Of a stretch of 64,000 bases of DNA, positions 7,191 through 51,737 are shown piece after piece. Origin of the DNA: Chondrosia reniformis (taxonomy: Eukaryota; Porifera; Demospongiae; Chondrillida; Chondrillidae). Every line of letters begins with the position of its first letter. The first letter of the stretch is position 1. Location of the stretch: the NCBI GenBank assembly GCA_947172415.1, contig OX359199.1, forward strand, positions 3,560,001 to 3,624,000, given 5' to 3'. The notes under the pieces were generated by a model. The model was not told the origin of the DNA. It saw only the letters and a program-made list of their open reading frames with translations, and did not search any database. Made by a program: the position numbers and the translations under genes.

Positions 7191-7212
7191 TTAGGCCAAT
7201 CTGAGGAAAGCC

Positions 7213-8338: not shown

Positions 8339-8340
8339 GG

Positions 8341-20395: not shown

Positions 20396-20458
20396 GTTGT
20401 CGGTTTCTGGGACATTTTCGCCAGAGCCCTTCTTCCACTTTCTTCAATCACCATGGAA

Positions 20459-23400
20459 ACAATATATATATAACACAAACTTTTGACCCTACATATATAT
20501 GCAATATATAAGATATATAACACATATATAAGATGTATACTTTTTTATACTTTTGACCTTACATATATATGCACTATATTACATATAAAATAAACTTATA
20601 AGTTATATACTATATATATAGCATATAAGATATATAACACATAAATAAGATATACTTTTTTCTTTTTTCAGGTGACCCAGCCTGGTATCGAACCAGGGCA
20701 TCCTCACACCCTGTATCCAGAAGATGTCATCCGTAACATCATCGGTCACGTTGGTCAACCAATGTATGATGTAAATGAAGTCAAATTTATATAACACACA
20801 CTTTGACCATCCATATATATGCAATATATAAGATATATAATATACATATAAGATGTATACTTTTTTTTTCAGGTGACCCAGCCTAGTATCGAACCAGGGC
20901 ATTCTCATACCCTGTTTCCAGATGATGTCATCCAAAAGATCGTCTGTCATGTGGGTTCCCCAATATATGATGTAATTGAAGTCCTCATAACATCATCGGT
21001 CACGTTGGTCACCCAATATACATATAAGATGTATACGTTTTTCTTTTTTCAGGTGACCCAGCCTGGTATTGAACCAGGGCATCCTCGTACCCTGTTTCCA
21101 AATGATGTCATCCGTAAGATCATTGGTCACGTGGGTTCCCCAATATATGATGTAAATGAAGTCCTATTTATATAACACACACTTTTGACCTTACATATAT
21201 ATGCAATATATAAGATTTATAATATACATATAATATGTATACTTTTTTCATTTTTCAGGTGACCCAGCCTCGTATCGAACCAGGACATCCTCACACCTTG
21301 TATCCAGAAGATGTCATCCGTAACATCATCGGTCACGTTGGTCAACCATTATATGATGTAAATGAAGTCCTATTTATATAACACACACTTTTGACCTTAC
21401 ATATATATGCAATATATAAGATATATAATATACATATAAGATGTAAACTTTTTTCTTTTTCAGATGACCCTGCTTGGTTTCGAACCAGGGCATCCTAGTA
21501 CCCTGTTTCCAGATAATGTCATTTTTAAGATCATCAGTAACGTGGGTTCCCCAATATATGATGTAAATGAAGTCCTATTTATATAAGACACACTTTTGTC
21601 CTTACATATATATGCAATATATAAGATATATATTATACATATAAGATATATACTATATATATAGTATATAAGATATATAACCCATATATAAGATGTATAC
21701 TTTTATTTCTTTTTTCAGGTGACCCAGCCATTTTTCGAATCAGGGCCTCCTAGTGCCTTGTATCCGGAAGATGTCAGAAGATGTCATCCGTAACATCCTT
21801 GGTCATGTTGGTCACCCAATATATGATGTAAATGAAGTCCGATTTATATAACATACACTTTTGACATTACATATATATGCAATATGTAAGGCATATACTA
21901 TATATATATGGTATATAAGATATATAAACATATATTAGATGTATACTTTTTCTTTTTTCAGGTGACCCAGCCTGGTATCGAACCAGGGCATCCTCGTACC
22001 CTGTATCCAGAAGATATCATTCGTAAGATCATTGGTGACATATATTCCCCAATATATGATGTAAATGAAGTCCTATTTATATAACACACACTTTTGACCT
22101 TACATATATGAAATATATAAGACATATAAAATATATATATATAGTATATAAGATATATAACACATATATAAGATGTATACTCTATTTTCTTTTTTCAGGT
22201 GACCCACCCTGGTATCGAACCAGGGCATCCTCGTACCCTGTTTCCAGATGATGTCATCCTTAAGATCATCGGTCAAGTGGGTTCCAGAATATATGATGTA
22301 AATGCAGTCCTCATAACAACATCGGTCACGTTGGTCACCCAATATACATACAAGATGTATAATTTTTTCTCTTTTTCCAGTTGACCTAGCCTGGTATCGA
22401 ACCAGGGCATCCTCCTACCCTGTTTCCAGATGATGTCATCCGTAAGATCATCGGTCACGTGGGTTCCCCAATATATGTTGTAAATGAAGTCCTATTTATA
22501 AAACACAAACTTTTGACCTTATATATATATGTAATATATAAGATACATAACACATATATGAGATGTATACTTTTTATACTTTTGACCTTACATATATTTG
22601 CAATATATAAAATATATAACACATATATGAGATGTATACTATATACGTAATATATAAGAAATATAATATACATATATAAGATGTGTACTTTTTTCTTTTT
22701 TGGAGTGACCCAGCCTGGTATAGAACCAGGATATCCTCGTACCCTGTCTCCAGAAGATGTCATCCGTAACATCATCGGTCACGTTGGTCACCCAATATAT
22801 GATGTAAATGAAGTCCTATATATATAACACATACTTTTGACCTTATATATATATGCAATATATAAGATATATAATATACATATAAGAAATATACTATATA
22901 TATAGTATATAAGATATATAACACATAAATAAGATATATACGTTTTTCTTTTTTCAGGTGACCAAGCCTGGTATCGAACCAGGGCATCCTCACAACCTGT
23001 ATACAGAAGATGTCATCCATAGCATCATCGGTCACATTGGTCAACCAATATATGAAGTAAATGATGTCCTATTTATATAACACACACTTTTGACCTTACA
23101 TATATATGCAATATATGCAATATATAATATATATGTAATATATAAGATGTATAACCCATATATAAGATGTATACTCGTTTTTCTTTTTCAGTTGACCCAC
23201 CCTGGTATCGAACCAAGACATCCTCGTACCCTGTTTCCAGATGATGTCAAACGTAAGATCATCGGTCACGTGGGTTCCCCAATATATGATGTAAATGAAG
23301 TCCAATTTATATAACACACACTTTTGACCTTGCATAACACATATATAAGATGTATACTTTTTTCTGTTTTCAGGTGACCAGGCCTGGTATCGAACCAGGC

Positions 23401-26400
23401 CATCCTCGTACGCTGCAGCCAGAAGATATCCACCGTAACATCATCGATCACGTTGGTTACCCAATATATGATGTAAATGAAGTCCTATTTGTATAACACA
23501 CACGTTTGACCTTACATAACACATATATAAGATGTATACTCTATTTTCTTTTTTCAGGTGACCCAGCCTGGTATCGAACCAGGGCATCCTCGTACCCTCT
23601 TTCCAGATGATGCTATTCGTAAGGTCATATGTCACGTGGGTTCCCCAATATATGATGTAAATGAAGTCCTATTTATATAACACATACTTTGACCATACAT
23701 ATATATGCAATATATAAGATATATAACACATATATAAGATGTATACTTTTATATACTTTTGACCTTACATATATATGCAATATATGATATATAATATACA
23801 TATAAGATATATACTATATATAAAGTATATAAGATATATAACACATATATAAGATGTATACTTTTTCTTTTTTCGAGTGACCCAGCCTGGTATCGATCCA
23901 GGGCATCCTCGTACCGTGTATCCAGAAGATATCATCCGTAAGATCATCGGTCACTTGAGTTCCCCAATATATGATGTAAATGAAGTCCTATTTATATAAC
24001 ACACACTTTTGATCTTACATATATATGCAATATATAAGAAATATAATATACATATTAGATATATGCTATATATATAGTATATAAGATATATGACACATAT
24101 ATAAGATGTATACTCTATTTTTTTTTAGGTGACCCAGCTTGGTATCGAACCAGGGCATCCTCGAACCCTGTTTCCAGATGATGTCAAACGTAAGATCATC
24201 GGGCACGTGGGTTCCCCAATATATGATGTAAATGAAGTCCTATTTATATAACACACACTTTTTACCTTACATAAAATATATATAAGATGTATACTTTTTC
24301 TTTTTTCAGGTGACCCAGAATTGTATTGAACCAGGGCATTCTCCTACCCTGTTTCCAGATGATGTCATCTGTAAGGTCATCCATCACGTGGGTTCCCCAA
24401 TATATGATGTAAATGAAGTCCTATTTATATAACACACACTTTTGACCTTACATAACACATATATAAGATTTATAACACATATATAAGATGTATACTTTTT
24501 TCTTTTTTCATGTGACCCAGCCTGGTATCGAACCAGGGCATCCTCGTACCCTCTTTCCAGATGATGCTATTCGTAAGATCATAGGTCATTTGGGTTCCCC
24601 AATATATGATGTAAATGAAGTCCTATTTATATAACACATACTTTGACCATACATATATATGCAATATATAAGATATATAACACATATATAAGATGTATAC
24701 TTTTATATACTTTTGACCTTACATATATATGCAATATATGATATATAACATACATATAAGATATATACTATATGTAAAGTATATAAGATATATAACACAT
24801 ATATAAGATGTATACTTTTTCTTTTTTCTGGTGACCCAGCCTGGTATCGAACCAGGGCATCCTCGTACCGTGTATCCAGAAGATATCATCCGTAAGATCA
24901 TCGGTCACTTGGGTTCCCCAATATATGATGTAAATGAAGTCCTATTTATATAACACACACTTTTGATCTTATATATATATGCAATATATAAGATATATAA
25001 TATACATATTAGATATATGCTATATATATAGTATATAAGATATATGACACATATCTAAGATGTATATTCTATTTTCTTTTTTTAGGTGACCCAGCCTGGT
25101 ATCGAACCAGGGCATCCTCGAACCCTGTTTCCAGATGATGTCAAACGTAAGATCATCGGTCACGTGGGTTCCCCAATATATGATGTAAATGAAGTCCTAT
25201 TTATATAACACACACTTTTTACCTTACATAAAATATATATAAGATGTATACTTTTTTCTTTTTTCAGGTGACCCAGAATTGTATTGAACCAGGGCATTCT
25301 CCTACCCTGTTTCCAGATGATGTCATCCGTAAGGTCATCCATCGAGTGGGTTCCCCAATATATGATGTAAATGAAGTCCTATTTATATAACACACACTTT
25401 TGACCTTACATAACACATATATAAGATTTATAACACATATATAAGATGTATACTTTTTTCTTTTTTCAGGTGACCCAGCCTGGTATCGAACCAGGGCATC
25501 CTCGTACCCTCTTTCCAGATGATGCTATTCGTAAGATCATAGGTCATATGGGTTCCCCAATATATGATGTAAATGAAGTCCTATTTATATAACACATACT
25601 TTGACCATACATATATATGCAATATATAAGATATATAACACATATATAAGATGTATACTTTTATATACTTTTGACCTTACATATATATGCAATATATGAT
25701 ATATAACATACATATAAGATATATACTATATGTAAAGTATATAAGATATATAACACATATATAAGATGTATACTTTTTCTTTTTTCTGGTGACCCAGCCT
25801 GGTATCGAACCAGGGCATCCTCGTACCCTGTTTCCAGATGATGTCATCCGTAAGGTCATCCGTCACGTGGGTTCCCCAATATATGATGTAAATGAAGTCC
25901 TATTTATATAACACACACTTTTGACCTTACATAACACATATATAAGATTTATAACACATATATAAGATGTATACTTTTTTCTTTTTTCAGGTGACCCAGC
26001 CTGGTATCGAACCAGGGCATCCTCGTACAGTGTAACCAGAAGATATCATCTATAAGATTATCGGTCAGGTGGTTTCCCCAATATATGATGTAAATGAAGT
26101 CCTATTTATATTTCACACACTTTTGACCTTACATATATATGCAATATATGATATATAATATACATATACGATATATACTATATATAACACATATATAAGA
26201 TGTATACTTTTTGTTTTTTTCAGGTGACCCAGCTTGGTATCGGACCAGGACATCCTCGTACCGTGTATCCAGAAGATATCATAAGTAAGATCATTGGTAA
26301 CATGGGTTCCCCAAAATATGATGTAAATGAAGTCCTCATAACATCATCGGTCACGATGGTCACCCATTATACATAGAAGATGTATACTTTTTCTTTTTTT

Positions 26401-29400
26401 GGGTGACCCAGCCTGGTATCGAACCAGGGCATCCTCGTACCGTGTATCCAGAAGATATCATCCGTAACATCTTCGGTCACTTTGGTCACCCAATATATGA
26501 TGTAAATGAAGTCCTATTTATATAACACATTCTTTGACCTTACATATATATGCAATATATAAGATATATAACACATAGATAAGATGTATACTTTTACATA
26601 CTTTTTACCTTACTTATATATGCAATATATAAGATATATAAGATATATATAAGAAATATACTATATAGATTGTATATAAGATATATAACACATAAATAAG
26701 ATGTATACTTTTTTTTAGGTGACCAAGTTTGGTATCGAACCAGGGCATCCTCACAACCTGTATAGAGAAGATGTCATCGATAGCATCATCGGTCACATTG
26801 GTCAACCAATATATGATGTAAATAAAGTCCTATTTGTATAACACACACTTTTGACCTTACATTACACATATATAAGATGTATACTCTATTTTCTTTTTTC
26901 AGGTGACCCAGCCTGGTATCGAACCAGGGCATCCTCATACCCTGTTCCAGATGATGTCATTCGTAAGATCATCGGTCACGAGGGTTCCCCAATATATGAT
27001 GTAAATGAAGTCCTATTTATATAACACACACTTTTGACCTCACATATATATGCAATTTATGATATATAATATACATATAAGATATATAACACATATATAA
27101 GATGTATGCCTTTTCTTTTTTCGAGTGACCCAGCCTGGTATCGAACCAGGGCATCCTCGTACCGTGTATCCAGAAGATATCATCCGTAACATCATCGGTC
27201 ACGTGGGTTCCCCAATATATGATGTAAATGAAGTCCTATTTATTTAACACACACTTTTACCTTACATATATATGCAATATATAAGATATTTAATATACAT
27301 ATAAGATATATGCTATATATATAGTATATAAGATATATGACACATATATAAGATGTATACACTATTTTCTTTTTTTAGGTGACCCAGCTTGGTATCGTAC
27401 GAGGGCATCCTCGTACCCTGTTTCCAGAAGATATCATCCGTAACATCTTCGGTCACGTTGGTCACCAAATATATGATGTAAATTAAGTCCTATTTATATA
27501 ACACATACTTTGACCTTACATATATATGCAATATATAAGATATATAACACATATATAAGATGTATACTTTTATATACTTTTTACCTTACATATATATGCA
27601 ATATATAAGATATATAATATACATATAAGAAATATACCATATATATTGTATATAAGATATATAACACATAAATAAGATGTATACTTTTTTCTTTTTTCAG
27701 GTGACCAAGCTGGTATCGAACCAGAGCATCCTCGTACCCTGTTTCCAAATGATGTCATCCGTAAGATCATCGGTCACGTGGGTTCCCCAATATATGATGT
27801 AAATGAAGTCCTATGTATATAACACACACTTTTGACCTTACATATATATGCAATATATAAGATTTATAATATACATATAATATGTATACTTTTTTCATTT
27901 TTCAGGTGACCCAGCCTCGTATCGAACCAGGACATCCTCACACCTTGTATCCAGAAGATGTCATCCGTAACATCATCGGTCACGTTGGTCAACCATTATA
28001 TGATGTAAATGAAGTCCTATTTGTATAACACACACTTTTGACCTTACATAACACATATATAAGATGTATACTCTATTTCTTTTTTCAGGTGACCCAGCCT
28101 TGTATCGAACCAGGGCATCCTCGTACCCTGTTTCCAGATGATATAATTCGTAAGATCATCGGTCACGTGGGTTCCCCAATAAATGATGTAAATGCAGCCC
28201 TATTTATATAACACACACTTTTGACCTTACATATATAGGCAATATATGATATATAATATACATATAAGATGTACAATATATATAAAGTATATAAGATAAA
28301 TAACACATATATGAGATGTATACTTTTTCTTTTTTCGGGTGACCCAGCCTGGAATCGAACCAGGACATCCTCGTACCGTGTATCCAGAAGATGTCATCCG
28401 TAACATCATCGGTCACGTGGGTTCCCCAATATATGATGTAAATGAAGTCCTATTTATATAACACACACTTTCACCTTACATATATATGCAATATATAAGA
28501 TATATAATATACATAGAAGATATATGCTATATATATAGTATATAAGATATATGACACATATATAAGATGTATACTCTATTTTCTTTTTTAGGTGACCCAG
28601 CCTGGTATCGAACCAGGGCATCTTCGTACCCTGTATCCAGATGATGGCATCCGTAACATCATCGGTTACGTGGGTCAACCAATATATGATGTAAATGAAG
28701 TCCTATTTATATAATACACACTTTTGACCTTATATATATATGCAATATATAACATATATAACACATATATAAGATGTATACTTTTTTTCTTTTTTCACGT
28801 GACCCATCCTGGTATCGAACTAGGGCATCCTCGTACCCTGTTTCCAGATGATGTCATCGTAAGATCATCGGTCACGTGTGTTTCCCAATATATGATGTAA
28901 ATGTAGTCCTATTTATGTAACACACACTTTTGACCCAACATATATATGTTATATATAAGATATATAATGTACAAATAAGATATATATATATAGTATATAA
29001 GATATATAGTACATATATAAGTTGTAATTTTTTTTCTTTTTTCAGGTGACCCAGCCTGGTAACGAAACAGAGCATCCTCGTTTCCTGTATCCAGATGATG
29101 TCATCCGTAACACCATCGGTCACGTGGGTTACCCAATATATGTTGTAAACGAAGTCCTTTTTATATATCACACACTTTTTACCCTATATATATATGTAAT
29201 ATATAAGATATATATAATATACATATAAGATATATATTATATATATAATATATAAGATATATAAAACATATATAAGTTGTATACCAGCCTGGTTTCGAAC
29301 CAAGATATAAAGAACATATTTAAGATGTATACTTTTTCTTTTTTCAGGTGACCCAGCCTGGAATCGAACCAAGGCATCCTCGTACGTTGTATCCAGATGA

Positions 29401-32400
29401 TGTCATCCGTAAGATCATTGGTCAAGAGGGTCACCCAATATACGATGTAAATGAAGCCCTATTTATAGAACACACACTTTGTCCTTATATATTTATGCAA
29501 TATATAAGATATATAATATACATATAAGATATATACTATATATATATAGTATATAAGATATATAACACATATATAAGATGTGAACTTTTTTCTTTTTCAA
29601 GTGACCCACCCTGGTATCGAACCAGGGCATCCTCGTGCCTTGTATCCAGAAGATGTCAGAAGATGTCATCCGTAACATCCTCGGTCACGTTGGTCACCCA
29701 ATATATGATGTAAATGAAGTCCAATTTATATAAGATACACTTTTTACCTTACATATATATGCAATATATAAGACATATACTATATATATAGTATATAATA
29801 TATATAACACATATATAAGATGTATACTTTTCTTTTTTCAGGTGACCCAGCCTGGTATCGAACCAGGGTATCCTCGTTCCATGTATCCAGAAGATATCAT
29901 CCGTAAGTCATGGGTCACGTGGGTTCCCCAATGTATGATGTAAATGAAGCCCTATTTATATAACACACACTTTTTACCTTACAAAAATATGCTATATATA
30001 AGATATATAATATACATATAAGATGTAAATTTTTTCTTTTTGCAGGTGACCCAGCCTGGTATTGAACCAAGGTATCCTCGCACCCTGTTTCCAGATGATG
30101 TCATCAGTAAGATCATCGGTCACATGGGTTCCCCAATATATGATGTAAATGAAGTCCTATTTATATAACCCAAACTTTTCACCTTACATATATATCTAAT
30201 GCATAAGATATATAACACACATATAAGATGTTTACTTTTTTCTTTTTTCAGGTGACCCAGCCTGATTTCGAACCAGGGCATCCTCATGCCTTGTATCCAG
30301 AAGATGTCAGAAGATGTCATCCGTAACATCCTCGGTCACGTTGGTCACCCAATATATGATGTAAATGAAGTCCAATTTATATAAGATACACTTTTAACCT
30401 TACATATATATGCAATATATAAGACATATACTATATATATAGTATATAATATATATAACACATATATAAGATGTATGCTTTTTCTTTTTTCCGGTGACCC
30501 AGCCTGGTATCGAACCAGGGTATCCTCGTACCGTGTATCCAGAAGATTTCATCCGTAAGGTCATGGGTCACGTGAGTTCCCCAATGTATGATGTAAATGA
30601 AGTCCTCATAACATCATCCGTCATGTTGGTCACACAATATACCTATAAAATGTAAACTTATTTCTTTTTTCAGGTGACCTATTCTTGTATCGAACCAGGG
30701 CATCCTGGTACCCTGTTTCCAGATAATGTCATCCGTAAGATCAACGGTCACATGGGTTCCCCAATATATGATGTAAATTAAGTCCTATTTATATAACACA
30801 AACTTTGACCCTACATATATGCAATATATAAGACATATAATATATATATAGTATATAAGATATATAACACATATATAAGATGTATACTTTTTCTTTTTTT
30901 AGATTACCCAGCCTGGTATTGAACTAGGGTATCCTCGTACAGTGTATTCAGAAGATATCATCCGTAAGATCGTCGGTCATGTGGGTTCCCCATTATATGA
31001 TATAAATGAAGTCCTATTTATATGACACACACTTTTGACCTTACATATATGTGCAATATATAAGATATATAATATACATTTAAGATGTATACAATACATG
31101 TAATATATAAGATATATAACACATATATAAGATGTATACTTTTTCTTTTTTCAGGTGACCCCGCCCGGTATCAAGGCGGGACATCCTCGTACCCTGTTTC
31201 AAGATGATGCTATCAGTAAGATCATCGTCACATGGGTTCCCCAATATATGATTTAAATGAAGTCCTCATAACATCATCGGTCACGTTGGTCACACAATAT
31301 ACATATAAGGTGACCCAGCCTGGTATTGAACCAAGGTATCCTTGTACCCTGTTTCCAGATGATGTCATCAGTGAGATCATCGGTCACATGGGTTCCCCAA
31401 TATTTGATTTAAATGAAGTCTTATTTATATAACCCAAACTTTTCACTCTACATATATATGTAATACATAAGATATATAACACATAGATAAGATGTATACT
31501 TTTTCTTTTTTAATTGACCCAGCCTGGTATCGAACCAAGATATCATCGTACCCTGTTTCCAAATGATGTCATCCGAAACATCATCGGTAACGTGGGTTCC
31601 CCAAAATATGATGTAAATGAAGTCCTATTTATATAACACAAACTTTTGACCCTACATATATATATATAATATATAAGATATATAACACATATTTAAGATG
31701 TATACTTTTTTATAATTTTGACCTTACATATATATGCAATATATAAGTTATATAATTTACATATAAGATATTTACAATATATATAGTATATAAGATATAT
31801 AAATATATATAAGATATATAGTTTTTCTTTTTTCAGGTGACCCAGCCTGGTATCGAACCAGGGCATCCTCATTCCCTGCTTCCAGAAGATGTTATCCTTA
31901 ACATCATCGGTCACGTTGGTCACCCAATATATGATGTACATGAAGTCCTATTTATATAACACACACTTTTGACATTAAAAATATATGCTATAAATAAGAT
32001 ATATAACACATATATAAGATGTACACTTTTTATAATTTTGACCTTACATATATATGCAATATATAAGGTGCATAATATACATATAAGATATATACCACAT
32101 AAATAAGATGTATACTTTTTTCTTTTTTCAGGTGACCCAGCCTGGTATCGAACCAGGGCATCCTCGTACCCTGTTTCTAGATGATATCATCCGTAAGATC
32201 ATCCGTCATGTGGGTTCCCCAATATATGATGTAAATGAAGTCCTATTTATATAACACACACTTTTGACCTTAAATATTTATGCAATATATAAGATATATA
32301 ATATACATATAAGATATATACTATATATATAGTATATAAGATATGTAACACATATATAAGATGTATACTTTTTTCTTTTTTCAAGTGACCCAGCCTGGTT

Positions 32401-32836
32401 TCGAACCAGGGCATCCTCGTGCCTTGTATCCAGAAGATGTCAGAAGATGTCATCCGTAACATCCTCGGTCACGTTGGTCACCCAATATACAATGTAAATG
32501 AAGTCCTATTTATATAACACACACTTTTTACCTTACATATATATGCAATATATAAGACATATACTATATATATATAGTATATAAGATATATAACACATAT
32601 ATAAGATGTATACTTTTCTTTTTTCAGGTGACCCAACCTGGTATCGAACCAGGGAATCCTTGTACCATGTATCCAGAAGATATCATCCGTAAGATCATGG
32701 GTCACGTGGGTTCCCCAATATATGATGTAAATGAAGTCCTACTTATATAACACACACTTTTGACCTTACATATATATGCAATATATAAGATATATAACAC
32801 ATATATCAGATGTATACTTTTTCTTTTTAGGGGCTG
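20459..32836 (+). repeat. Long satellite array with T-arm/exon-like core
   Basis: About 50 tandem units spaced roughly 180-320 bp. Each has an AT-rich spacer (TATATAAGATATATAACAC words), a pyrimidine tract TTTTTCTTTTTTCAG, a conserved ~99-bp core starting GTGACCCAGCCTGGTATCG and ending CCAATATATGAT, then GTAAATGAAGTCCTATTTATA. On the minus strand the core contains CCTGGTTCGATACCAGG, a 5-bp stem and 7-nt loop matching a tRNA T-arm and internal-promoter B-box pattern, followed by an A-rich tract. On the plus strand the core is open for 33 codons in most units. Two core subtypes are interspersed. The array is interrupted at 32.83 kb by a composite insertion. Confidence 0.95.
23558..25788 (+). 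repeat. Higher-order repeat of about 956 bp within the array
   Basis: Four basic units form a block that recurs almost unchanged. Equivalent core starts lie at 23558, 24512 and 25470 (spacings 954 and 958 bp). Diagnostic words such as CTCTTTCCAGATGATGCTATTC and the CCAGAATTGTATTGAACC variant recur in order. The third copy is shortened after about 25790 by deletion of one or two internal units. Confidence 0.85.
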
Positions 32837-33229: not shown

Positions 33230-33291
33230 GTATTGTTTTCATTTGCCGATTACGTTGTACGGCTTCATGTTACGGAAAGATATATATATAC

Positions 33292-34655: not shown

Positions 34656-34843
34656 GAGTGTAATTGGATACGTAGGGGTGGATTTGGATAAATATGCGTG
34701 CGTGCAAGCTCATGATTTGAGTTGAGATGAGTTGAGATAATGAGTTTCACTATAATGAGATTCCACTCTATATACAGTGCAAGTAAATTCATGTACACAT
34801 TCATCCATGGGCTCCTGTGTACCTATTTCCTCATTTAGAGCAT

Positions 34844-34872
<29 letters not shown>
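34656..34872. other. Spacer with (TA)n run
   Basis: No gene recognised. TTGAGATGAGTTGAGATAA repeats near 34718, and (TA)n at 34844-34872. Confidence 0.4.
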
Positions 34873-34874
<2 letters not shown>

Positions 34875-35727
34875 ATCAAGTACTACACAGTGCAAGTTAC
34901 AAATTTATACATGGATGCAAGTGACTCCCAAGATAATCACAATCAGGTATACAAGACTTTAGCCACACTGAAATTCTCAACTGCTGCATACAGAGTAGTA
35001 GTCTCTACAGATCATATAAGGTTAAATACATGGCCTTCCAATTACCTTTTCACACCTAAGTATGGACTGAAGATGATGCATCTGCATGCCATTATCAGCA
35101 AAAATTCCAGTCTCATGCAGGGGATCTCAGCCAATAATCACCGCAGATTTGACTTGCCTTGAGTGTCAGCTAGGAGTACCATTGGTTGCTTGCATGCATT
35201 CACATAAACAACAGGGTTAGAGACGATTTGGTAACTTACACACAGGTACATAAAGGCTGGGGCCTTTAATTTATTTCATGAACAATGTCCCTTGTGTGCA
35301 AGTTACCAAATCATGTCTAACCCTGTTGTTTATGTGAATGCATGCAAGCAACCAATGGTACTCCTAGCTGACACTCAAGGCAAGTCAAATCTGCGGTGAT
35401 TATTGGCTGAGATCCCCTGCATGAGACTGGAATTTTTGCTGATAATGGCATGCAGATGCATCATCTTCAGTCCATACTTAGGTGTGAAAAGGTAATTGGA
35501 AGGCCATGTGTTTAACCTTATATGATCTGTAGAGACTACTACTCTGTATGCAGCAGTTGAGAATTTCAGTGTGGCTAAAGTCTTGTAGCGTTTAATATAC
35601 CTGATTGTGATTATTTTGGGAGTCATTTGCATCCGTGTTATATTATATACCTCAGTGTGATTATCTTGGGAGTCACTTGCATCCGTGTATAAATTTGTAA
35701 CTTGCACTGTGTAGTACTTGATTGTAT

Positions 35728-35735
<8 letters not shown>
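34873..35735. mobile_element. Foldback element, arms of about 390 and 470 bp
   Basis: Left arm 34873-35262 and right arm about 35290-35735 are near-perfect inverted copies (left ATCAAGTACTACACAGTGC, right its complement). The loop is about 40 bp around AAAGGCTGGGGCCTTT. The right arm has an extra ~80-bp duplication containing a second AGTCATTTGCATCCGTG word. The identical open frames in both arms are a consequence of the inversion, not evidence of a gene. A (TA)n run borders each end. A diverged relative is at 13776-14440. Confidence 0.8.
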
Positions 35736-35757
<22 letters not shown>

Positions 35758-35758
<1 letters not shown>

Positions 35759-36004
35759 ATACGAGTTCATACGCAACTATTGTAACACTTAATTTATACG
35801 TCAATACATCGTTTTTGCAAATGGCAGCATTCAGGAAGCTTTAGTTAACGAAGCTTTTCCATCGTTATTTATAAAGTTCAGGACACTTAAGCGTCCTCAA
35901 TCGTTAGTATTACGAATATATATATTAAATCCCAACGATGCGGCCAAGTAGTTTGAGTTAATTCGGGGGCGGCAGCCCCACGAGTTTTTAAACTCGAACT
36001 ACTT
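35758..36004 (+). mobile_element. Second copy of the 3' half of the 400-bp element
   Basis: 247 bp nearly identical to 32985-33229, same orientation, ending in the palindrome at 35946-36004. The satellite resumes immediately with TTTCAGATGACCCAGCC. The insertion 32830-36004 is therefore bracketed by two related segments and splits one satellite unit at its pyrimidine tract. Confidence 0.8.
35946..36004 (+). repeat. Nested palindrome (family copy 4)
   Basis: Arms AAGTAGTTTGAGTTAA and TTTAAACTCGAACTACTT around GGGGGCGGCAGCCCC. Almost identical to copy 3. Confidence 0.85.
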
Positions 36005-39000
36005 GTTTCAGATGACCCAGCCTGGTATCGAACCAGGGCAACCTCGTACCGTGTATCCAGAAGATATCATCCGTAAGATCATCGGTCACGTGGGTTCCCC
36101 ATTATATGATGTAAATGAAGTCGTATTTATGTAACACAAACTTTTGACTCTACATAAATATGTAATATATAAGATATATAACACATATATCAGATGTATA
36201 CTTTTTTATAATTTTGACCTTACATATATATGCAATATATGCAATATATATTATATATATAGTATATAAGATATATAACACATAAATAAGATGTATACTT
36301 TTTCTTTTTTCAGGTGACCCAGCCTGGTATCGAACCAGGGCATCCTCGTACCCTCTTTCCAGATGATGTCTTCCGAAAGATCATCGGTCACGTGGGATCC
36401 CCGCAATAGGATGTAAATGAAGTCCTATTTATATAACACAAACTTTTGACCCTATATATATATACTATATAAGATATGTAACACATATATAAGATGTATA
36501 CTTTTTTATAATTTTGACCTTACATATATATGCAATATATGAGTTATATAATATACATATAAGATATATACAATATATATAGTATATAAGATATATAACA
36601 CATATAGAAGATGTATACTTTTTTCTTTTTTCAGGTGACCCAGGCTGATATCCAACCAGGGCATCCTTGAACTTTGTATCCGGAAGATGTCATCCGTAAC
36701 ATCATCAGTCACGTTGGTCACCCAATATATAATGTAAATGAAGTCCTATTTATATAACACACACTTTTGACTTTAAATATTTATGCAATATATAAGATAT
36801 ATAATATACATATAAGATATATACTGTATATATTGTATATAAGATATATAACACATATATAAGATATATACTTTTTTTCTTCTTTCAAGTGACCCAGCCT
36901 GGTTTCGAACCAGGGCATCCTCGTGCCTTGTATCCAGAAGATGTCAGAAGATGTCATCCGTAACATCCTCGGTCACATTGGTCACCCAATATACAATGTA
37001 AATGAAGTCCTATTTATATAATACACACTTTTTACCTTACAAATATATGCAATATATAAGACATATACTATATATAGTATATAAGATATATAACACATAT
37101 ATATGCAATATATAAGACATATACTATATATAGTATATAAGATATATAACACATATATATGCAATATATAAGTTATATAATATACATATTAGATATATAC
37201 AATATATATAGTAAATAAGATATATAACACATATAGAAGATGTATACTTTTTTCTTTTTTCAGGTGACCTAGGCTGATATTCAACCAGGGCATCCTCATA
37301 CCCTATTTCGAGATGATGTCATCCGTAAGATCATCGGTCACGTTTGTCAACCACTATATGATGCAAATGAAGTCCTATTGATATAACACACACTTTTGAC
37401 CTTATGTATATATGCAAAATATGCAATATATAATATACATATAAGATGTATACTTTTTTCTTTTTTCAGGTGACCCAGCCTGGTATCAAACCAGGGCATC
37501 CTCTTACCCTGTTTTCAGATGATGTCATTCGTAAGATCATAGGTCACGTGGGTTCCCCAATATATGATGTAAATGAAGTCCTATTAATATAACACAAACG
37601 TTTGACCCTATATATATATGTAATATATAAGATATATAACACATATATAAGATGTATACTATATATTTAATATATAAAAAAGATAATATACAAATATAAG
37701 ATGTATACTCATTTTTCTTTTTCCAGGTGACCCAGCCTGGTATAGAACCAGGGCATCCTCATACCCTGTATCCAGAAGATGTCATCAGTAACATAATCAG
37801 TCACGTTGTTCACCCAATATATGATGTAAATGAAGTCCTATTTATATAACACACACTTTTGACCTTACATGTATATGCAATATATAAGATATATAATATA
37901 CATATAAGATATATAATATATATGTAATATATAAGATATAAAACACATATATAAGATGTATACTTTATTTCTTTTTTCAGGTGACCCATCCTAGTATCGA
38001 ACCAGGACATCCCCCAACCCTGTTTCAGATGATGGCATCCGTAAGATCATTGGTCACGTGGGTTCCCCAATATATTATGTAAATGAAGTCTTCATAACAT
38101 CATCGGTCATGTTGGTCACCCAATAGACATATAAGATGTATACTTTTTTCTTTTTTCAGGTGACCAAGCCTGGTCTCGAACCAGGGCATCCTCACACCCT
38201 GTATACAAAAGATGTCATCCATAATATCATCGGTCACGTTGGTCAACCAATATATGATGTAAATGAAGTCCTATTTATATAACACACACTTTTAACCTTA
38301 CATATATATATGCAATATATAAGATATATAATAAACATATAAGATGTATACTTTTTCTTTTTTCAGGTGATCCAGCATATTATTGAATCAGGGCATTATC
38401 GTACCCTGTTTCCAGATGATGTCATCCGTAAGATCATCAGTCACGTTGGTCAACCACTATATGATGTAAATGAAGTCCATTTGATATAACACACACTTTT
38501 AACCTTACATATATATGCAAAATATGCAATATATAATATACATATAAGATGTATACTTTTTTCTTTTTTCAGGTGACCCAGCCTGGTATCGAACCAGGGC
38601 ATCCTCACACCCTGTATACAAAAGATGTCATCCATAATATCATCGGTCACGTTGGTCAACCAATATATGATGTAAATGAAGTCCTATTTATATAACACAC
38701 ACTTTTGACCTTACATATATATATGCAATATATAAGATATATAATAAACATATAAGATGTATACTTTTTTCTTTTTTCAGGTGACCCATCCTGGTATCGA
38801 ACCAGGACATCCTCGTACCCTGTTTCCAGATGATATCATCCGTAAGATCATCGGTCATGTGGGTTCCCCAATATATGATGTAAATGAAGTCCTCATAACA
38901 TCATCGGTCACGTTTGTCACCCAATATAAGATGAATCCTTTTTGTTTCTGGTGACCCAGCCTGATATCGAACCAGGACAACCTCGTACCCTGTTTCCAGA

Positions 39001-39952
39001 TGATGTCATCCGTAAGATCATCGGTAACATGGCTTCCACAATATATGATGTAAATGAAGTCCTATTTGTATAACACACACTTTTGACCTCATATAACACA
39101 TATATAAGATGTATACTTTTTCCTTTTCTCAGGTGACCCAGCCTGGTATCAAACCAGGGCATCCTCGTACCCTGCATCCAGAAGATGTCAACCGTAACAT
39201 CATCGGTTGCGTTGATTACCCAATATATGATGTAAATGAAGTCCTATTTATATAACACACACTTTTGACTTTACATAACACATATAAGAGATGTATAACA
39301 CATATATAAGATGTATACTATATATGAAATATATAAGAAATGTATACTTTTTCTTTTTTCGAGTGACCCAGTCTGGTATCGAACCAGGATATCCTCGTAC
39401 CTTGTATCCAGAAGATGTCATCCGTAACATCATCGGTCACATTGGTCACCCAATATATGATGTAAATGAAGTCCTATTTAAATAGCACACACTTTTGACC
39501 TTACATATATATGTAATATATAAGATATATAATATACATATAATATATATAATATACATGTAATATATAAGATATAAAACATATATATAAGATGTATACG
39601 ATTTTGTCTTTTTTCAGGTGACCCAGCCTGGTATTGAACCAGGACATCCTCGTACCCTGTTTCCAGATGATGTCATCCGTAAGATCATCGGTCACGTGGG
39701 TTCCCCAATATATGATGTAAATGAAGTCCTCATAACATCATCGGTCACGTTGGTCACCCAATATACATATAAGATGTATACTTATTTTTCTTTTTTCAGG
39801 TGACCCAGCCTGGTATCGAACCAGGATATCCTCGTACCTTGTATCCAGAAGATGTCATACGTAACATCATCGGTCACGTTGGTCACCCAATATATGATGT
39901 AAATGAAGTCCTATTTAAATAGCACACACTTTTGACCTTACATATATATGTA
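36005..39952 (+). repeat. Long satellite array, second block
   Basis: Continuation of the array of 20.46-32.84 kb, same orientation, about 15 units. Several adjacent units share the CTCATAACATCATCGGTCACG junction, in which a partial core follows a full core. The frame through the two then stays open, for example 38757-38954 and 39618-39803. Confidence 0.95.
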
Positions 39953-40706
39953 AAGAAATATTAAAAATTTTCTACAAAAATAGTGAAGATGTAGGGATGG
40001 CATAAAAAGTAGAGAAACAAGAAAGGGATGTTACACAGTGAAGCATTAGCTGTGCATGAATCATACAACACCCTTGCTTGTAGGATTCATGTATAGCTAA
40101 TGCTTCACTGTGTAACATCCCTTTCTTGTTTCTCTACTTTTTATGCCATCCCTACATCTTCACTATTTTTGTAGAAAATTTTTAATATTTCTAGTTTCTG
40201 TACTTTTTATGGAGCATGGGCTAGGAATTAGATTCGTATAATTAAAATCATTTTGGTTTCGCAATCTTCGACTGATTATGACGTCATTAAAATGGCGACT
40301 TTATTGAGGCCTTGACTCTAGGGTCATGAAAACCGCCATGCTCAATAATAGCGTTATCGCTCTCGCTTCTACAAAAGAATACAGCTCGGAAAATTTGCAG
40401 TAGTTTCGTGTAACAATTAGTCCAAAAGCTTATATAGTTTTTTAGTTATGGCTGACGAAGAATAAGAAGAAGAAGAAGAATATGAAGAAGACGAAAATGG
40501 GAATTTTTAAAGTTTATTATTTCGCCAGCGGGACATATTCGCTTGCTTTTAAGGTCTATTTAGAGTATGTATATTGTATATTTAGCTATACATAGCCTTG
40601 TTTTGTCGATTTTCGGCCTATTTCGGGATTTCGCTCCTATACCAATGTATGGGGAAAACGAAAAAACCGTGTCATCCCTACATAGGGAGTACTACCGTAC
40701 TCCCTG
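39953..40706. mobile_element. ~750-bp insertion beginning with a long perfect palindrome
   Basis: Arms of about 110 bp (39955-40063 and 40085-40192) are inverted copies: left TTTTCTACAAAAATAG ... AAGCATTAGCT, right the complement. About 20 bp of loop separates them. Roughly 480 bp of unique sequence follows, including a short acidic reading frame at 40447 broken by TAA (MADEE then stop), and a small inverted repeat GGGAGTACTACCGTACTCCC at 40685-40704. The element splits the satellite. The satellite segments on its two sides (39490-39803 and 40707-40994) are near-identical duplicates. Confidence 0.7.
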
Positions 40707-41385
40707 ATATATAAGATATATAATATACATATAATATATATAATATACATGTAATATATAAGATATAAAACATATATATAAGATGTATACGATTTTGTCT
40801 TTTTTCAGGTGACCCAGCCTGGTATTGAACCAGGACATCCTCGTACCCTGTTTCCAGATGATGTCATCCGTAAGATCATCGGTCACGTGGGTTCCCCAAT
40901 ATATGATGTAAATGAAGTCCTCATAACATCATCGGTCACGTGGGTAACCCAATATACATATAAGATGTATACTTATTTTTCTTTTTTCAGGTGACCCAGC
41001 CTGGTATCGAACCAGGGCATCCTCGTACCCTGTTTCCGGATGATATCATCCGTAAGATCATCGGTCATGTGGGTTCCCCAATATATGATGTAAATGAAGT
41101 CCTATTTATATAACACACACTTTTAACCTTATATAACACATATAAGAGATGTATAACACATATATAAGATGTATACTATATATGTAATATATAAGAAATA
41201 TACACATATAAGATTTATACTTTTTCTTTTTTCGAGTGACCCAGTCTGGTATCGAACCAGGACATCCTCGTACCCTGTATCCAGAAGATGTCATCCATAA
41301 CATCATCGGTCACGTTGGTCACCCAATATATGATGTAAATGAAGTCCTATTTAAATAACACATACTTTTGAATTTATATATATAT
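40707..41385 (+). repeat. Long satellite array, third block
   Basis: Three units, the first two almost identical to 39522-39950. Ends within an AT-rich spacer at the 5' end of LINE B. Confidence 0.9.
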
Positions 41386-41543
41386 GGCAGCATGGCAGCA
41401 GATTGTGTACCCTCCTCAACCACCTTTTCCACCACCACCTTGCTGTCCAATAAGGGGGGTTCCTCACCCTCAGAGGCTGCCAACCCCTCAGAATCAGCTA
41501 CTGCCGCCTCCCTGCCCGTATCTCCATCACTGGTCAGGCCAGT

Positions 41544-43010
41544 GTGCAGGAAAGATCCCATACCTGTATCCTCTACCTTCCCCCAGTCACTACTCAGATA
41601 AAATGTAGTGTTTGGAATGTAAGTGGTTTAGGCAATAAATTAGGTAACAATTTCATAGCTAATATTATGTCTCACCTAGATTTAGATATTCTTTGTGTTT
41701 GTGAAACTTTCTTAAGGAACAATGATTGTCCTCCTTCTAACCATAATTATATTTGGTATGGCTCTTATAGGAAACTGTTATCAAAGAAAGCTACCAGAGG
41801 CTCTGGTGGTGTTGGGGTCTTTATTAATCAATCACTATTGAGGTCATTTAATGTTAATGTCCTAGATAATTCAGTAGATGATATTCTCTGGCTCAGCTTC
41901 ACTAGTACCACACAAATGTTTGTTGACTTTGTCCTATGTGTTGGTTACCTCCCGCCAGTAGGCTCCAGTAGAGGTGACACAGCAGTAGAATTTTTTGATA
42001 CTCTTATATCCCAGACCTACAAATTTCAAAATTTTGGTAACTTCTTTATCTGTGGTGATTTTAATGCCTGATGTGGTACTCTTAAGGACCCCCTAGAAGA
42101 TGTATTCCCTAGACAAATTCTCGACAAAACAGTGAACTCACATGGTGTAAAACTCATGGAATTCCTCAATAGTTGTGACATGTGCTTACTAAATGGAAGA
42201 ACCCACTTTAATAATCAAGGTAACTACAATCACTTTACTTCTATCTCCCCAAAAGGCCCTGCTGTAGTAGACTACTGTCTGTTGCCCTCCGAGTGTGTTG
42301 ATAGATATAAGAACTTTTCTGTTATCACCATGACCGAGTTATTGGCCCTCCTGTCTCACCTATATACACTACAGAAACTCTCAGACCACTCTATTCTCAC
42401 ATGGGATCTTGTTGTTAACGACGAAAATTCTGCAATTCAACTCTGTCCCAACTCACTACCTCACACCCCTTTAATATGTAAACCGTCAATCCCTTCACCC
42501 CCCTCTCCTATCGCAGATACTCCCACTGATTCTCACTCTCTGAATCAAATCTTGACACTAATAGAAAGCCTCCAGGACCCTTCTATAGTTACACACCCCT
42601 CCCTATATATAGAAGCCAATTACAGTACATTTCTCTGTACCATTATCCCCCCTGCCCCCCGCACTACTTCAGTTTTATATAAATCTTCCTCCAGTTACAT
42701 TAGATCCTCTAAAAAACCCTGGTGGAGTAGCTCCCTTACTGCAGCTAGGAAAACCCTTAAAAGTACACAGAGGAGATGGTTAAAAAATAAATCAGATCAG
42801 AACCTGTTTATAAATTACAAGGTTGCCCAAAGACATTTTGATAAGTTAGTCAGAAATTCTAAACGATCTCTAATTAGGAAGAAACGAGAGAATCTATTAG
42901 GAATGCTGTCCAAAAACCAAAGAAAATTTTGGAAAACCTTTGACAGAATCTCAGTAGCTAGTGAAAGGGCACAAAAAGAGGCATACCTAGACAAGTTAGA
43001 CTGCATAATG
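41544..43010 (+). pseudogene. LINE B ORF2: AP endonuclease and linker
   Basis: Endonuclease motifs in order: KCSVWNVSGLGN, LCVCETFLRN (catalytic Glu), RGSGGVGVFIN, VGYLPPVGSSRGD, FFICGDFNA, then VVDYCLL and LSDHSILTWD (catalytic His). The reading frame is single except for TGA at 42069-42071, directly after GDFNA and before CG. LINE A has Arg at that position (NARCG), so a CGA-to-TGA transition is the simple explanation. A basic, Lys/Arg-rich linker with KKPWWSSSL follows. The frame is lost near 43010. Confidence 0.85.
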
Positions 43011-44380
43011 GTAATCTTAGTAATGATCCTAGGGTTGTCAAAGATTCTTGGTTGTCCTTCTTCAAAAGTATTTATGCAGGAACAACTGACTGTAACCCAG
43101 CAGGTAACCCTTTGGTATCCCAAATAACACCTGAATATGATGTAAACCACACTAACACTGATCATGACCCCAGTAATGAGTTACCTAACCCTCTAATGCA
43201 CCCAGAGGAATTAGAGGTGGCTATTACCCTAAGGATATTGATTTAGCTATTACCCTATTAGGAGAAAACAAATCCCCCGGATTAGATGGAATTACTACCT
43301 CAATTCTTAAAAATGAAAATGGTCAAGAGATACCTACTTGTGCTTTATAACTATTGCTTTGACTCTGGACTAATTCCTTCCTCTTGGGATAACACCTTAA
43401 TATGCCCTATCCCTAAAATAACAATGACCCCTACTCCCCTGAAAATTACAGAGGTATTGCCATACAATCAATCATCCTAAAGGTTTTCTGCCACATACTT
43501 AACAAAAGACTGAGTTTGTACTTAGAAATTAATGATTTACTTGTTGAGGAACAGTATGGCTTTAGAAAACAAAGAAGCTGTGCCGACCATCTTTTCTCTT
43601 TAAGTAGTGTAATTGAAGCTAGAATGAAAATGAAATTAGACACCTTTGTCTGCTTTATTGACTTCAGAAAAGCCTTCGACTCTATCTATCCCTAGAAATC
43701 GTCTCTGGGGTAAACTACAGAGGATTGGTGTGAAAGGCAAATTATTAAGGTCATTCAAAGTATGTACTCCAATGTCCACTACACAATAAAACTTAACGAT
43801 ACCTTTACAGAATACTTTAAGGTAGATCAGGGTGTAAAACAAGGATGCCCCTCTCCCCTACACTTTTCAATATTTACATTAATGACTTAGCCATAGACCT
43901 CAAAAAGTGCCAGCTTGGCATCAATATATATAATGATAAATTAAGTTGCCTTCTCTATGCAGATGATATTGCAACCTGTGCGAATCAGTAACTGATTTAC
44001 AGCGTCTACCAGATATACTGCATGTTTGGTGTGCCAAATGGCAACTCCAAATTAACACCAATAAGACTAAGGTCATTCATTTCCGCCCGACTCAACACAA
44101 ACTATCACAGTTCAAATTTCATATAGGCTCCTCTCACATAGAATACACCAAAGATTATAATTACCTAGGTTTATCACTAAATGAACATTTAACCTGGAGC
44201 AATTCTATTGCATTAATATCCAAGAAAGCCTCCAAAGCTTCCAACCTCTTAACAGCTAAATCTAGAGCATATGGTAACTTCCATTATAATGTCTTTAGTC
44301 ATCTATACCGAACACTAGTCCTAAGTATAATTAGTTATAGCTCACATATCTGGGGTGCAAAAGAATATCAGGCCCTTGAA
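43011..44380 (+). pseudogene. LINE B ORF2: reverse transcriptase, multiply frameshifted
   Basis: RT blocks appear in alternating frames: KSPGLDGITTSILKN (about 43275), the ENYRGIAIQS-like block near 43440, EEQYGFRKQRSCADHLFSL, FVCFIDFRKAFDSI (43650), VKQGCP near 43833, and LSCLLYADDIATC with YADD intact at 43956-43967. DYNYLGLSLNEHLTW and IISYSSHIWG follow. I count at least five frame changes or stops, so no functional RT can be made. Confidence 0.85.
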
Positions 44381-45133
44381 TTGGTACAAAACAATGTCAT
44401 GAGATCGTTTATAGGCCTTGGTAAGACTGCTCCTCTTGTCGGACTCATGGGTGAACTAAACTGGAAGCCATTACACTGGCATACTAAATTTACCATCATT
44501 AAATTCTGGCATCACCTTTGTGGTCTCCCTATTAAATGCATGCCCAAGAAGGCATTATTGTTTTTAGCCAAACTTAACCTTAAAGATACATGGTATAGCA
44601 ATGTTATGGATGTAATCTCTAAATTAATTACCCCCATTGATGCTCCTTATCCTGCTATTTCTAACCCAAGTTATTTCATGAACATCACCATCATGTATGA
44701 TAGATCACAATTCCTTAGTCATACCATGCAACTTATAAATAAATTAGCCTTACAAGATTGGACCTTACTAGACACTATAGACAAAAATAGTAGATCTGGG
44801 GGCAGGTTAGCTGACTACAGGCTCATTAAGAGAACGCCCTCAACTGATGACTATATAAGGACCGGTAATTTTGATAAAAGGAGAGTCCTGGCAGACCTGA
44901 GGTGTGGGTGCCTCCCTCTTGAAATTGAGAAGGGCAGATTAAGACACCCTAAGGTTGATCTGGAGAGCAGGATTTGCCAGCTGTGTAACTGTGGTGCAAT
45001 AGAGGACTCCACTCATTTTATCCCAAACTGTCCAGCTTTCAATCATACAAGATGTAATCTTTTTGCTGAGTGCTCACTTTTATCCCCTAACTTCTACTCT
45101 TACCCAAGTATCCGAAAAACAACTTCATCCTAA
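44381..45133 (+). pseudogene. LINE B ORF2: C-terminal region with zinc finger
   Basis: A 250-codon open stretch ending at TAA 45131-45133. It includes a long helical region and, near 44965-45060, RICQLCNCGAIEDSTHF and a following Cys, a C-x2-C ... H ... C finger typical of the end of LINE ORF2 proteins. This part is intact in frame. Confidence 0.8.
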
Positions 45134-45398
45134 CATACCCAAATCAAAAGATCTCAAATTATATTTACAGTATGTACATTCATCGTAAATCTCTCACTCA
45201 TTCTCACTAATTTTTGTTCCATAAAGGTTTTATAATACACACACCCTCCCTGCATGGCCCTGGAAATGAATACCCAATGACTTGTAAAGCCACCATGGGT
45301 TGGGCTATTCCTGATTGATCTTTTTTCAGAATAGCATGTCACATTAATAAAAATCATTATTATTATTATATTATTATTATTATATTATTATTATTATG
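45134..45398 (+). repeat. LINE B 3' UTR and (ATT)n tail
   Basis: A non-coding tail ends in ATTATTATTATATT repeats at about 45353-45397. The satellite resumes at GCAATATATAAG. The microsatellite tail marks the 3' terminus of the insertion. Confidence 0.85.
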
Positions 45399-45885
45399 CA
45401 ATATATAAGATATATAACACATATATAAGATGTATAATTTTTTATACTTTTGACCTTACAAATATATGCAATATATAAGATATATAATATACATATAAGA
45501 TATATACTATATATATAGTATATAAGATATATAACACATAAATAAGATGTCTACTTATTTTTCTTTTTTCAGGTGACCCAGGCTGGTATCGAACCAGGGC
45601 ATCCTCGTACCCTGTTTCCAGATGATGCCATCCATAAGATCATCGGTTACGTGGGTTCCCCAATATATGATGTAAATGAAGTCCTCATAACATCATCGGT
45701 CACGTTGGTCACCCAATATACATATAAGATGTATACTTTTTTCTTTTTTCAGGTGACCCAGCCTGGTATCGAACCAGGATATCCTCGTACCCTACATCCA
45801 GAAGATGTCATCCGTAAGATCATCGGTCACGTTGGTCACCCAATATATGATGTAAATGAAGTCCTATTTATATAACACAAAGTTT
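45399..45885 (+). repeat. Long satellite array, fourth block, plus orientation
   Basis: Two units. The second runs in frame with the first over 45573-45875 because of the CTCATAACATC partial-core junction. Confidence 0.9.
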
Positions 45886-46157
45886 ATGGCCTTATCGGCA
45901 TTGGTTCGATTACAAACTGGGTCACTTGAAAAAAGAAAAAAGTATACATCTTACATATGTGTTATATATCTTAAATATTACATATATATGTAGGGTCAAA
46001 AGTTTGTGTCATATAAATAGGACTTCATTTACAACATATATTGGGGAACCCACGTGACCGATGGTCTTACGGATGACATCTTCTGGATACAGGGTACGAG
46101 GATGCCCTGGTTTGATACCAGGCTGGGTCACCTGAAAAAAGAAAAAGTATACATCTT
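45886..46157 (-). repeat. Long satellite array, inverted terminal units
   Basis: Orientation flips at about 45886. The next cores read on the minus strand (GGTTCGATTACAAACTGGG near 45905; GGTTTGATACCAGGCTGGG near 46110, then CACCTGAAAAAAGAAAAAG). The array then ends and the 13-bp satellite begins within about 10 bp. Confidence 0.9.
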
Positions 46158-51668: not shown

Positions 51669-51713
51669 TACCTACTTTAGAAAGAAAAGCCTTAATGGAG
51701 AACCTTGTTACTT

Positions 51714-51737
51714 CTTGCCTTAGTTTACTAAGGCAAG
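51714..51737 (-). other. Perfect hairpin near the LINE copy 2 3' end
   Basis: Read on the minus strand: CTTGCCTTAG, loop TAAA, CTAAGGCAAG, a perfect 10-bp stem about 45 bp before the satellite junction. Terminal hairpins in LINE 3' UTRs are often what the RT recognises; here that is inference. Confidence 0.6.

What the first reader, a model, noticed from the sequence alone, without database searches (positions are those of the whole stretch)
20459..46157. Satellite whose core carries a tRNA T-arm-like hairpin followed by an A-rich tract
On the minus strand nearly every unit contains CCTGGTTCGATACCAGG: a perfect 5-bp stem with a 7-nt TTCGATA loop. It also matches the Pol III B-box pattern GWTCRANNC. 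It lies inside a longer closing stem (GTGACC ... GGTCAC) and is followed by AAAAAAGAAAAAAG. This looks like a tRNA-related (SINE-like) module that became a tandem satellite of more than 70 units. No A box and no close Pol III terminator were seen, so transcription is inference.
Basis: partly seen in the sequence, partly recalled or inferred. Interest (0 to 1): 0.75.

Follow-up and report, generated by a model that had tools for sequence, protein, structure and literature searches.

The report
Sponge mid-chromosome satellite with tRNA-gene-like module
A tandem repeat of the kidney sponge that was found in one mid-chromosome zone on most chromosomes, probably at or beside the centromeres, and whose unit pairs a TATA-like box with a tRNA T-arm-like hairpin at about the spacing seen in this sponge's own tRNA genes.

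Summary
In detail: 75 units, 74 on the minus strand; the T-arm 17-mer is exact in 30 and within two mismatches at 67 places. The window is, by assembly size and chromosome lengths, chromosome 11 of the demosponge Chondrosia reniformis. The 17-mer has 1,091 near matches genome-wide. Units were found on 11 of 14 chromosomes, each time within one zone between 27% and 59% of chromosome length, on both strands on 8 of 11, and beside a 13-bp satellite where I looked. Best reading: a (peri)centromeric satellite.

The tRNA idea is partly supported. A TATA-like box lies 96 nt before the T-arm; this sponge's tRNA genes often carry TATA at a similar distance. But no tRNA model matches, only the T-arm resembles tRNAs, compensatory changes do not exceed a tree-based null, the T-arm evolves at the average rate, and downstream TTTT is mostly missing. 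The TATA-containing 24-mer is the best conserved block.

A SINE origin is not supported: all listed copies lie in these zones, and the upstream box belongs to the repeat. Centromere function and Pol III factor binding are inference: no ChIP, Hi-C or RNA data.

The parts
20467..32826 (-). main block of satellite units (about 180-320 bp apart)
   Evidence: nhmmer hits; T-arm places
35990..41388 (-). second block of units
   Evidence: nhmmer hits
45395..45953 (-). third short block of units
   Evidence: nhmmer hits
45902..46162 (+). inverted unit at the right end of the array
   Evidence: nhmmer hits on the plus strand; T-arm at 46106-46122 +
21164..21174 (-). TATATAAATAG box of one example unit
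   Evidence: sequence; box and spacing statistics
21062..21078 (-). T-arm/B-box-like hairpin CCTGGTTCAATACCAGG of the same unit
21038..21050 (-). A-rich tract after the T-arm of the same unit
   Evidence: sequence
2502..5585 (+). 13-bp satellite TATGTACTAGTTG left of the array
46166..52000 (-). 13-bp satellite in the opposite orientation right of the array (approximate limits)
   Evidence: 1st to 3rd 2-kb bins after the array
6781..9181 (+). retroelement copy (reverse transcriptase ORF 7328-8338), left flank
   Evidence: inverted matches of 90-95% to 52305-55982; RVT_1
52305..55982 (-). copy of the same retroelement in opposite orientation, right flank

Best explanation
This is a (peri)centromere-associated satellite of Chondrosia reniformis. 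Shown: units found on 11 of 14 chromosomes, on each in one mid-chromosome zone; blocks in both orientations on 8 of 11; a 13-bp satellite and retroelements beside it on chromosomes 8 and 11. Each unit is a rigid module (TATA-like box, 96 nt to a T-arm/B-box-like hairpin, A-rich tract) followed by an AT-rich spacer of variable length. Inferred: these zones are centromeric or pericentromeric; the unit began as a tRNA-like Pol III locus copied together with its upstream TATA box, spread by unequal exchange and inversion, and now serves as bulk (peri)centromeric DNA. Inferred and less likely: the sites still recruit TBP/TFIIIB or TFIIIC and help set chromatin domains. My odds: (peri)centromeric place about 0.7; tRNA-like Pol III ancestry about 0.4; present Pol III factor binding about 0.1.
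For: 1,091 near matches of the 17-mer, 0 for the reversed control. Complete lists of rarer patterns (31, 60, 18, 7 and 10 places) and capped lists put every listed place in one zone per chromosome, at most 1.24 Mb wide. Oriented blocks with a flip in contiguous sequence on chromosome 8. TATA-to-T-arm start 96 nt (median in four arrays, sd 0.4-2.4) against sd 8-62 for the spacer to the next box. TATA-containing 24-mer least variable of 124 windows. 18 of 40 own tRNA genes have TATAWA upstream, 1.9 in shuffles; tRNA-Sec carries the same 11-mer TATATAAATAG.
Against: No CENP-A, Hi-C or cytological evidence. No units listed on chromosomes 1, 9 and 12 (an 8-kb piece of chromosome 1 has none). Likeness to tRNAs vanishes without the T-arm (24 against 23.5, 128 of 300 shuffles as good). 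T-arm and B-box evolve at the average rate (ranks 53 of 131 and 80 of 137) and the A-box-like stretch faster (117 of 137). TTTT within 60 nt of the T-arm in only 40 of 294 units. No compensatory signal.
Confidence: 0.6

Rival explanations
1. An ordinary (peri)centromeric satellite with no tRNA ancestry: the T-arm is a chance dyad spread by homogenisation, and the TATA-containing block is conserved as a site for some other satellite-binding protein or only by homogenisation.
For: No tRNA model matches; likeness to tRNAs is the T-arm alone; T-arm rate average. Short dyads are reported as common in centromeric repeats (PMC13081366, passages).
Against: A B-box inside a 5-bp stem arises in 4 of 60,000 shuffles of the unit, and it sits close to the distance from a TATA-like box found in own long-arm tRNA genes (97 against 93-94 nt).
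Confidence: 0.35
2. A SINE with a tRNA-like head that became tandem.
For: B-box hairpin followed by an A-rich tract.
Against: All listed places lie in one zone per chromosome, none dispersed (two lists capped). The best conserved block is an upstream TATA-like box, which retroposition of a Pol III transcript would not be expected to copy (general knowledge). I did not search for diverged dispersed relatives beyond these patterns.
Confidence: 0.08
3. A working array of Pol III genes for a structured four-arm RNA.
For: TATA-like box, B-box, and intact units from chromosomes 4 and 3 that fold with z -4.9 and -3.5; sense z lower than antisense in arrays of chromosomes 3, 4 and 8.
Against: Seven window units z 0.07 to -2.3; antisense as good in chromosomes 11 and 13; no consensus fold over all 271 cores; no compensatory excess; TTTT near the T-arm in 40 of 294 units against 42 of 42 Pol III genes examined.
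Confidence: 0.06
4. Tandem protein-coding exons on the opposite strand: a T-tract plus CAG resembling a splice acceptor, then an open frame of 40 codons.
For: 171 of 295 units have no stop in the first 40 codons; stop-making changes are somewhat rarer than expected in frame 0 (6 against 15 on C11, 25 against 34 on C8).
Against: No clear synonymous excess in frame 0 (155 against 164, 370 against 388, 31 against 52, 26 against 30, 32 against 28 expected) and no consistent third-position bias; 53 of 295 units have a shifted frame length.
Confidence: 0.02

Closest known systems
Tribolium (peri)centromeric satellites in macro-dyad symmetries (PMC13081366, passages read)
   Same: satellite blocks in alternating orientation, two satellites intermingled, putative (peri)centromeric place
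   Different: no TATA-like/B-box module named in the passages I saw; unrelated animal; blocks there are far more numerous
5S rDNA amplified at (peri)centromeres of pikes (PMC5437419, abstract read)
   Same: a Pol III gene-derived tandem repeat, (peri)centromeric on many chromosomes, some blocks inverted
   Different: there the units are real, mostly intact 5S genes; here no known RNA family matches and downstream TTTT is mostly missing
Cassandra tandem arrays of plants (PMC7215508, passages read)
   Same: Pol III promoter boxes repeated in long tandem arrays
   Different: Cassandra is a retroelement with LTRs and a 5S-like domain; no LTR or retroelement structure was seen in the unit
Fission yeast centromeric tRNA genes and inverted repeats with B-boxes (PMC2040200, abstract; PMC4502379, passages)
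   Same: B-box elements at heterochromatin borders; what the module would work like if it binds TFIIIC
   Different: few sites with tested barrier activity there; here a large array in an animal, binding untested
tRNA-derived SINEs (general knowledge, no call)
   Same: B-box and A-rich tract
   Different: no dispersed copies among those listed; external TATA-like box inside the repeat; no recognisable tRNA body

Membership tests
tRNA gene | matches a tRNA covariance model or tRNA finder | tested here: not met
   ARAGORN 0 genes in window and 8 other loci; Rfam no tRNA or tRNA-Sec hit in the window at gathering scores, or at E up to 10 in 5.5 kb of the array and in one chromosome 4 unit, or at E up to 5 in 6 kb of chromosome 4
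Pol III gene with TATA and B-box | TATA-like box and B-box at the spacing of own tRNA genes | tested here: inconclusive
   unit 97 nt TATAAA to GGTTC in 85 of 119 measured; own genes median 85.5 over 14, 93-94 in three long-arm ones
Pol III gene with TATA and B-box | T-run terminator downstream | tested here: not met
   TTTT within 60 nt in 40 of 294 units, anywhere before the next box in 86 of 269; downstream in 42 of 42 Pol III genes examined
Pol III gene with TATA and B-box | A box | tested here: inconclusive
   only a degenerate A-box-like stretch seen by eye, and it varies more than average (rank 117 of 137)
structured RNA | compensatory base changes | tested here: not met
   none of six helices exceeds 200 simulations in double changes
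tRNA-derived SINE | dispersed copies | tested here: not met
   all listed places lie in one zone per chromosome; lists capped, one search scored 40 of 1,821 candidates
tRNA-derived SINE | target-site duplications around single copies | not tested
   no single dispersed copy was at hand
satellite DNA | head-to-tail tandem array homogenised by chromosome | tested here: met
   tandem array; chromosome consensuses differ at 10 of 90 core positions
centromeric satellite | one locus per chromosome, on every chromosome | tested here: inconclusive
   one zone on 11 of 14; not listed on 1, 9, 12
centromeric satellite | CENP-A chromatin or primary constriction | not testable with these tools
   needs ChIP or FISH

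The most novel reading that the evidence does not exclude
The (peri)centromeres of a sponge are built on more than a thousand tandem TATA plus B-box modules that still recruit TFIIIB/TFIIIC, so that Pol III factors organise animal centromeric chromatin from a dedicated satellite.
Probability: 0.08. Interest if true: 0.85.

Novelty: new variant of a known kind. Interest (0 to 1): 0.45.

Why it matters
My two searches for sponge centromeric DNA returned no paper on it: one search found none, and the two are, by title and start of abstract, unrelated. If the mid-chromosome zones are centromeres, they give an entry point to centromere evolution in an early-branching animal. A satellite whose best conserved block contains a TATA-like box, near the spacing used by the host's tRNA genes, also makes the question of Pol III factors at animal centromeres directly testable.

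Tried and rejected
Tried: Rfam at permissive thresholds on parts of the window array and on chromosome 4 units (no tRNA; weak hits to CRISPR-DR40, microRNA, RAGATH-25 and SNORD83 models, all far below their cut-offs and taken as chance). tRNA-Sec as a relative: the real gene is on chromosome 12; it shares the TATATAAATAG 11-mer, but no tRNA-Sec hit falls in the array. Coding exons on the other strand: no codon signature. RNA covariation: letter shuffles suggested an excess of double changes (T-arm 9 against 3.2, D-like 13 against 4.0) that was gone against alignments simulated on a tree, where only the percentage of paired cells of the D-like helix stays high (9 of 200 simulations as high). 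RNAalifold over 271 cores gave no structure; chromosomes 3, 4 and 13 alone gave about -10 kcal/mol with almost no covariation term. U6 upstream for a shared proximal element: none seen by eye. Viral-contig scan for relatives: 0.

Rows dropped: the unit set keeps 313 hits from five chromosomes (3, 4, 8, 11, 13) that reach from profile position 92 or before to 236 or beyond; 271 cores were left after dropping identical ones and those with more than 12 gaps. 40 of 63 tRNA matches were fetched, and that search had scored 63 of 5,542 candidates. Units of chromosomes 2, 5, 6, 7, 10 and 14 were located but not aligned.
Full report
Identity of the window. The genome that holds the window has 117,379,552 bases in 15 contigs; the window is C11:3,560,001-3,624,000. 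C11 has 7,633,987 and C8 8,125,224 bases. The genome note of Chondrosia reniformis (PMC12181767; passages read) gives 117.37 Mb, 14 chromosomes plus a mitochondrial genome, chromosome 11 of 7.63 Mb and chromosome 8 of 8.13 Mb.

The array. A profile from the 30 exact units finds 75 hits of at least 141 bits in the window, 74 on the minus strand. The T-arm 17-mer occurs 67 times with up to two mismatches, 0.02 expected. Blocks: 20,467-32,826, 35,990-41,388 and 45,395-45,953, then one inverted unit up to 46,162. Inserts: a LINE-like stretch at 41,454-45,133 (endonuclease domain in its first ORF; the two further ORFs have no Pfam match) and a stretch with a 295-bp, 99% inverted repeat at 34,950-35,587.

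Place in the genome. With up to one mismatch the 17-mer has 1,091 matches; the reversed control has none. Lists are capped at 100 places, so I also used rarer patterns whose lists are complete: 31 places, 60, 18, 7, 10. Together with the capped lists and the DNA search (40 of 1,821 candidates scored), places fall on chromosomes 2, 3, 4, 5, 6, 7, 8, 10, 11, 13 and 14, on each in one zone: C2 4.83-6.02 Mb, C3 2.56-3.79, C4 3.34-4.36, C5 2.45, C6 4.41-4.70, C7 3.41-3.97, C8 3.58-3.67, C10 3.63-3.72, C11 3.58-3.61, C13 3.33-3.39, C14 3.04-3.45. That is 27% to 59% of chromosome length. None was listed on chromosomes 1, 9 and 12. This is not proof of absence: each complete list also misses several of the 11 chromosomes. 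An 8-kb piece of chromosome 1 taken from its 13-bp satellite zone has no unit.

Layout. In 144 kb of C11 and 120 kb of C8 the units and a 13-bp satellite (TATGTACTAGTTG) lie in oriented blocks. C8 reads units(-), 13-bp(-), flip, 13-bp(+), units(+). The flip at 3,645,533-3,645,574 is in contiguous sequence, before the assembly gap at 3,647,201-3,647,400; the plus-strand units lie beyond that gap. Places on both strands are listed for 8 of 11 chromosomes (2, 3, 4, 6, 7, 8, 11, 13). The 13-bp satellite has 5,575 exact 26-mers; the first 100, all that are listed, lie on C1 between 3.82 and 4.24 Mb. In the window, copies of one retroelement flank the array in opposite orientation (6,781-9,181 and 52,305-55,982).

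Anatomy of the unit. The start of the TATATAAATAG block lies a median of 96 nt before the T-arm in four arrays (sd 0.4-2.4), while the distance on to the next box has sd 8-62. The 11-mer is exact in 171 of 288 boxes, the B-box in 158 of 294 T-arms, and 104 units have both. The 24-mer that begins with this box has the lowest substitution rate of 124 windows of its size and does not differ between the five chromosome consensuses; the T-arm ranks 53 of 131, the B-box 80 of 137, the 5' side of the long closing stem 136 of 139.

Comparison with Pol III genes of the same sponge. Of 63 tRNA matches I fetched 40 with 80 nt upstream, plus tRNA-Sec and U6. 18 of 40 tRNAs have TATAWA between -45 and -15, against a mean of 1.9 (largest 10) in 500 mononucleotide shuffles; of 30 occurrences in the 80 nt before all 42 genes, 19 start at -35 to -31. 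tRNA-Sec has TTTATATAAATAG there. All 42 have TTTT downstream. TATAWA to B-box: median 85.5 nt over 14 genes, 93-94 in three with long arms; in units 97 nt in 85 of 119 measured, the remainder scattered and including mispaired boxes. In units TTTT follows within 60 nt of the T-arm in 40 of 294, and anywhere before the next box in 86 of 269. Local alignment to 41 tRNAs: best 36 against a mean of 25.1 for shuffles (3 of 300 as good), but without the T-arm 24 against 23.5 (128 of 300). So the layout is tRNA-gene-like, and the body is not a recognisable tRNA.

Structure. Two intact units from chromosomes 4 and 3 fold as multi-arm structures with z -4.9 and -3.5; seven window units give z from 0.07 to -2.3. 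With DNA parameters five units give z -0.7 to -2.7. Mean z of sampled units, sense and antisense: C11 -1.38 and -1.46 (24 of 69), C8 -1.96 and -1.50 (24 of 148), C3 -1.49 and -0.67 (20 of 20), C4 -2.07 and -1.00 (19 of 19), C13 -1.47 and -1.55 (15 of 15). RNAalifold finds no structure over all 271 cores. Double changes that keep a pair do not exceed simulations along the inferred tree for any of six helices; percent paired is high for the D-like helix alone (9 of 200 simulations as high). A letter shuffle without the tree had given 9 against 3.2 for the T-arm and 13 against 4.0 for the D-like helix.

Coding. The opposite strand has an open frame in 171 of 295 units, but frame 0 shows no clear synonymous excess in five arrays.

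Mechanism. The best-supported reading is a (peri)centromere-associated satellite that spread between chromosomes and differs a little from chromosome to chromosome; this place is inferred from position, orientation and neighbours, not from centromere proteins. The fixed TATA/B-box module suggests descent from a tRNA-like Pol III locus copied with its upstream flank, rather than from a retroposed SINE. Whether Pol III factors still bind is open: the conserved TATA-containing block favours some bound factor, while the average T-arm rate and the missing TTTT speak against active genes. In fission yeast a centromeric tRNA gene acts as a heterochromatin barrier and B-boxes contribute to a boundary element (PMC2040200, abstract; PMC4502379, passages). 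Inverted satellite blocks at putative (peri)centromeres are described in Tribolium (PMC13081366, passages), a Pol III gene repeat amplified at (peri)centromeres in pikes (PMC5437419, abstract).

Literature limits. Searches for sponge centromeres, TFIIIC with B-box, centromere and satellite, tRNA-derived satellites (12 of 16 listed) and satellites with Pol III promoters listed no report of this satellite. The library holds open-access papers only, and most listed papers were seen as titles and abstract starts.

Noticed in passing
window 2502-5585, 9212-9335, 10612-10864 and about 46166-52000; C1 3.82-4.24 Mb: 13-bp satellite TATGTACTAGTTG, 5,575 exact 26-mers in the genome; oriented blocks that flip.
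   Followed up: partly
window 15703-20443 (-): LINE-like element with PHD-finger, endonuclease and reverse transcriptase ORFs; the ORF at its 5' end stops right at the left border of the array.
   Followed up: partly
window 41454-45133 (+): LINE-like insert with an endonuclease domain between two blocks of units.
   Followed up: partly
window 34950-35587: Inverted repeat with 295-bp arms, 99% complementary, 48 nt apart, inside the gap of the array.
   Followed up: no
window 10809-11498 (+); L035 1-2000: Reverse transcriptase ORF beside 13-bp repeats (RVT_1 below its cut-off); it looks Penelope-like by eye, and similar pieces lie next to the 13-bp repeat on chromosome 1.
   Followed up: no
plus strand of the units: T-tract plus CAG that resembles a splice acceptor, followed by a 40-codon open frame in 171 of 295 units; no coding signature.
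   Followed up: yes
tRNA loci L044-L083, L038: tRNA genes of this sponge often carry a TATA box about 30-36 nt upstream (18 of 40).
   Followed up: yes
window 59623-60783 (+): ORF with a macro domain to the right of the array.
   Followed up: no
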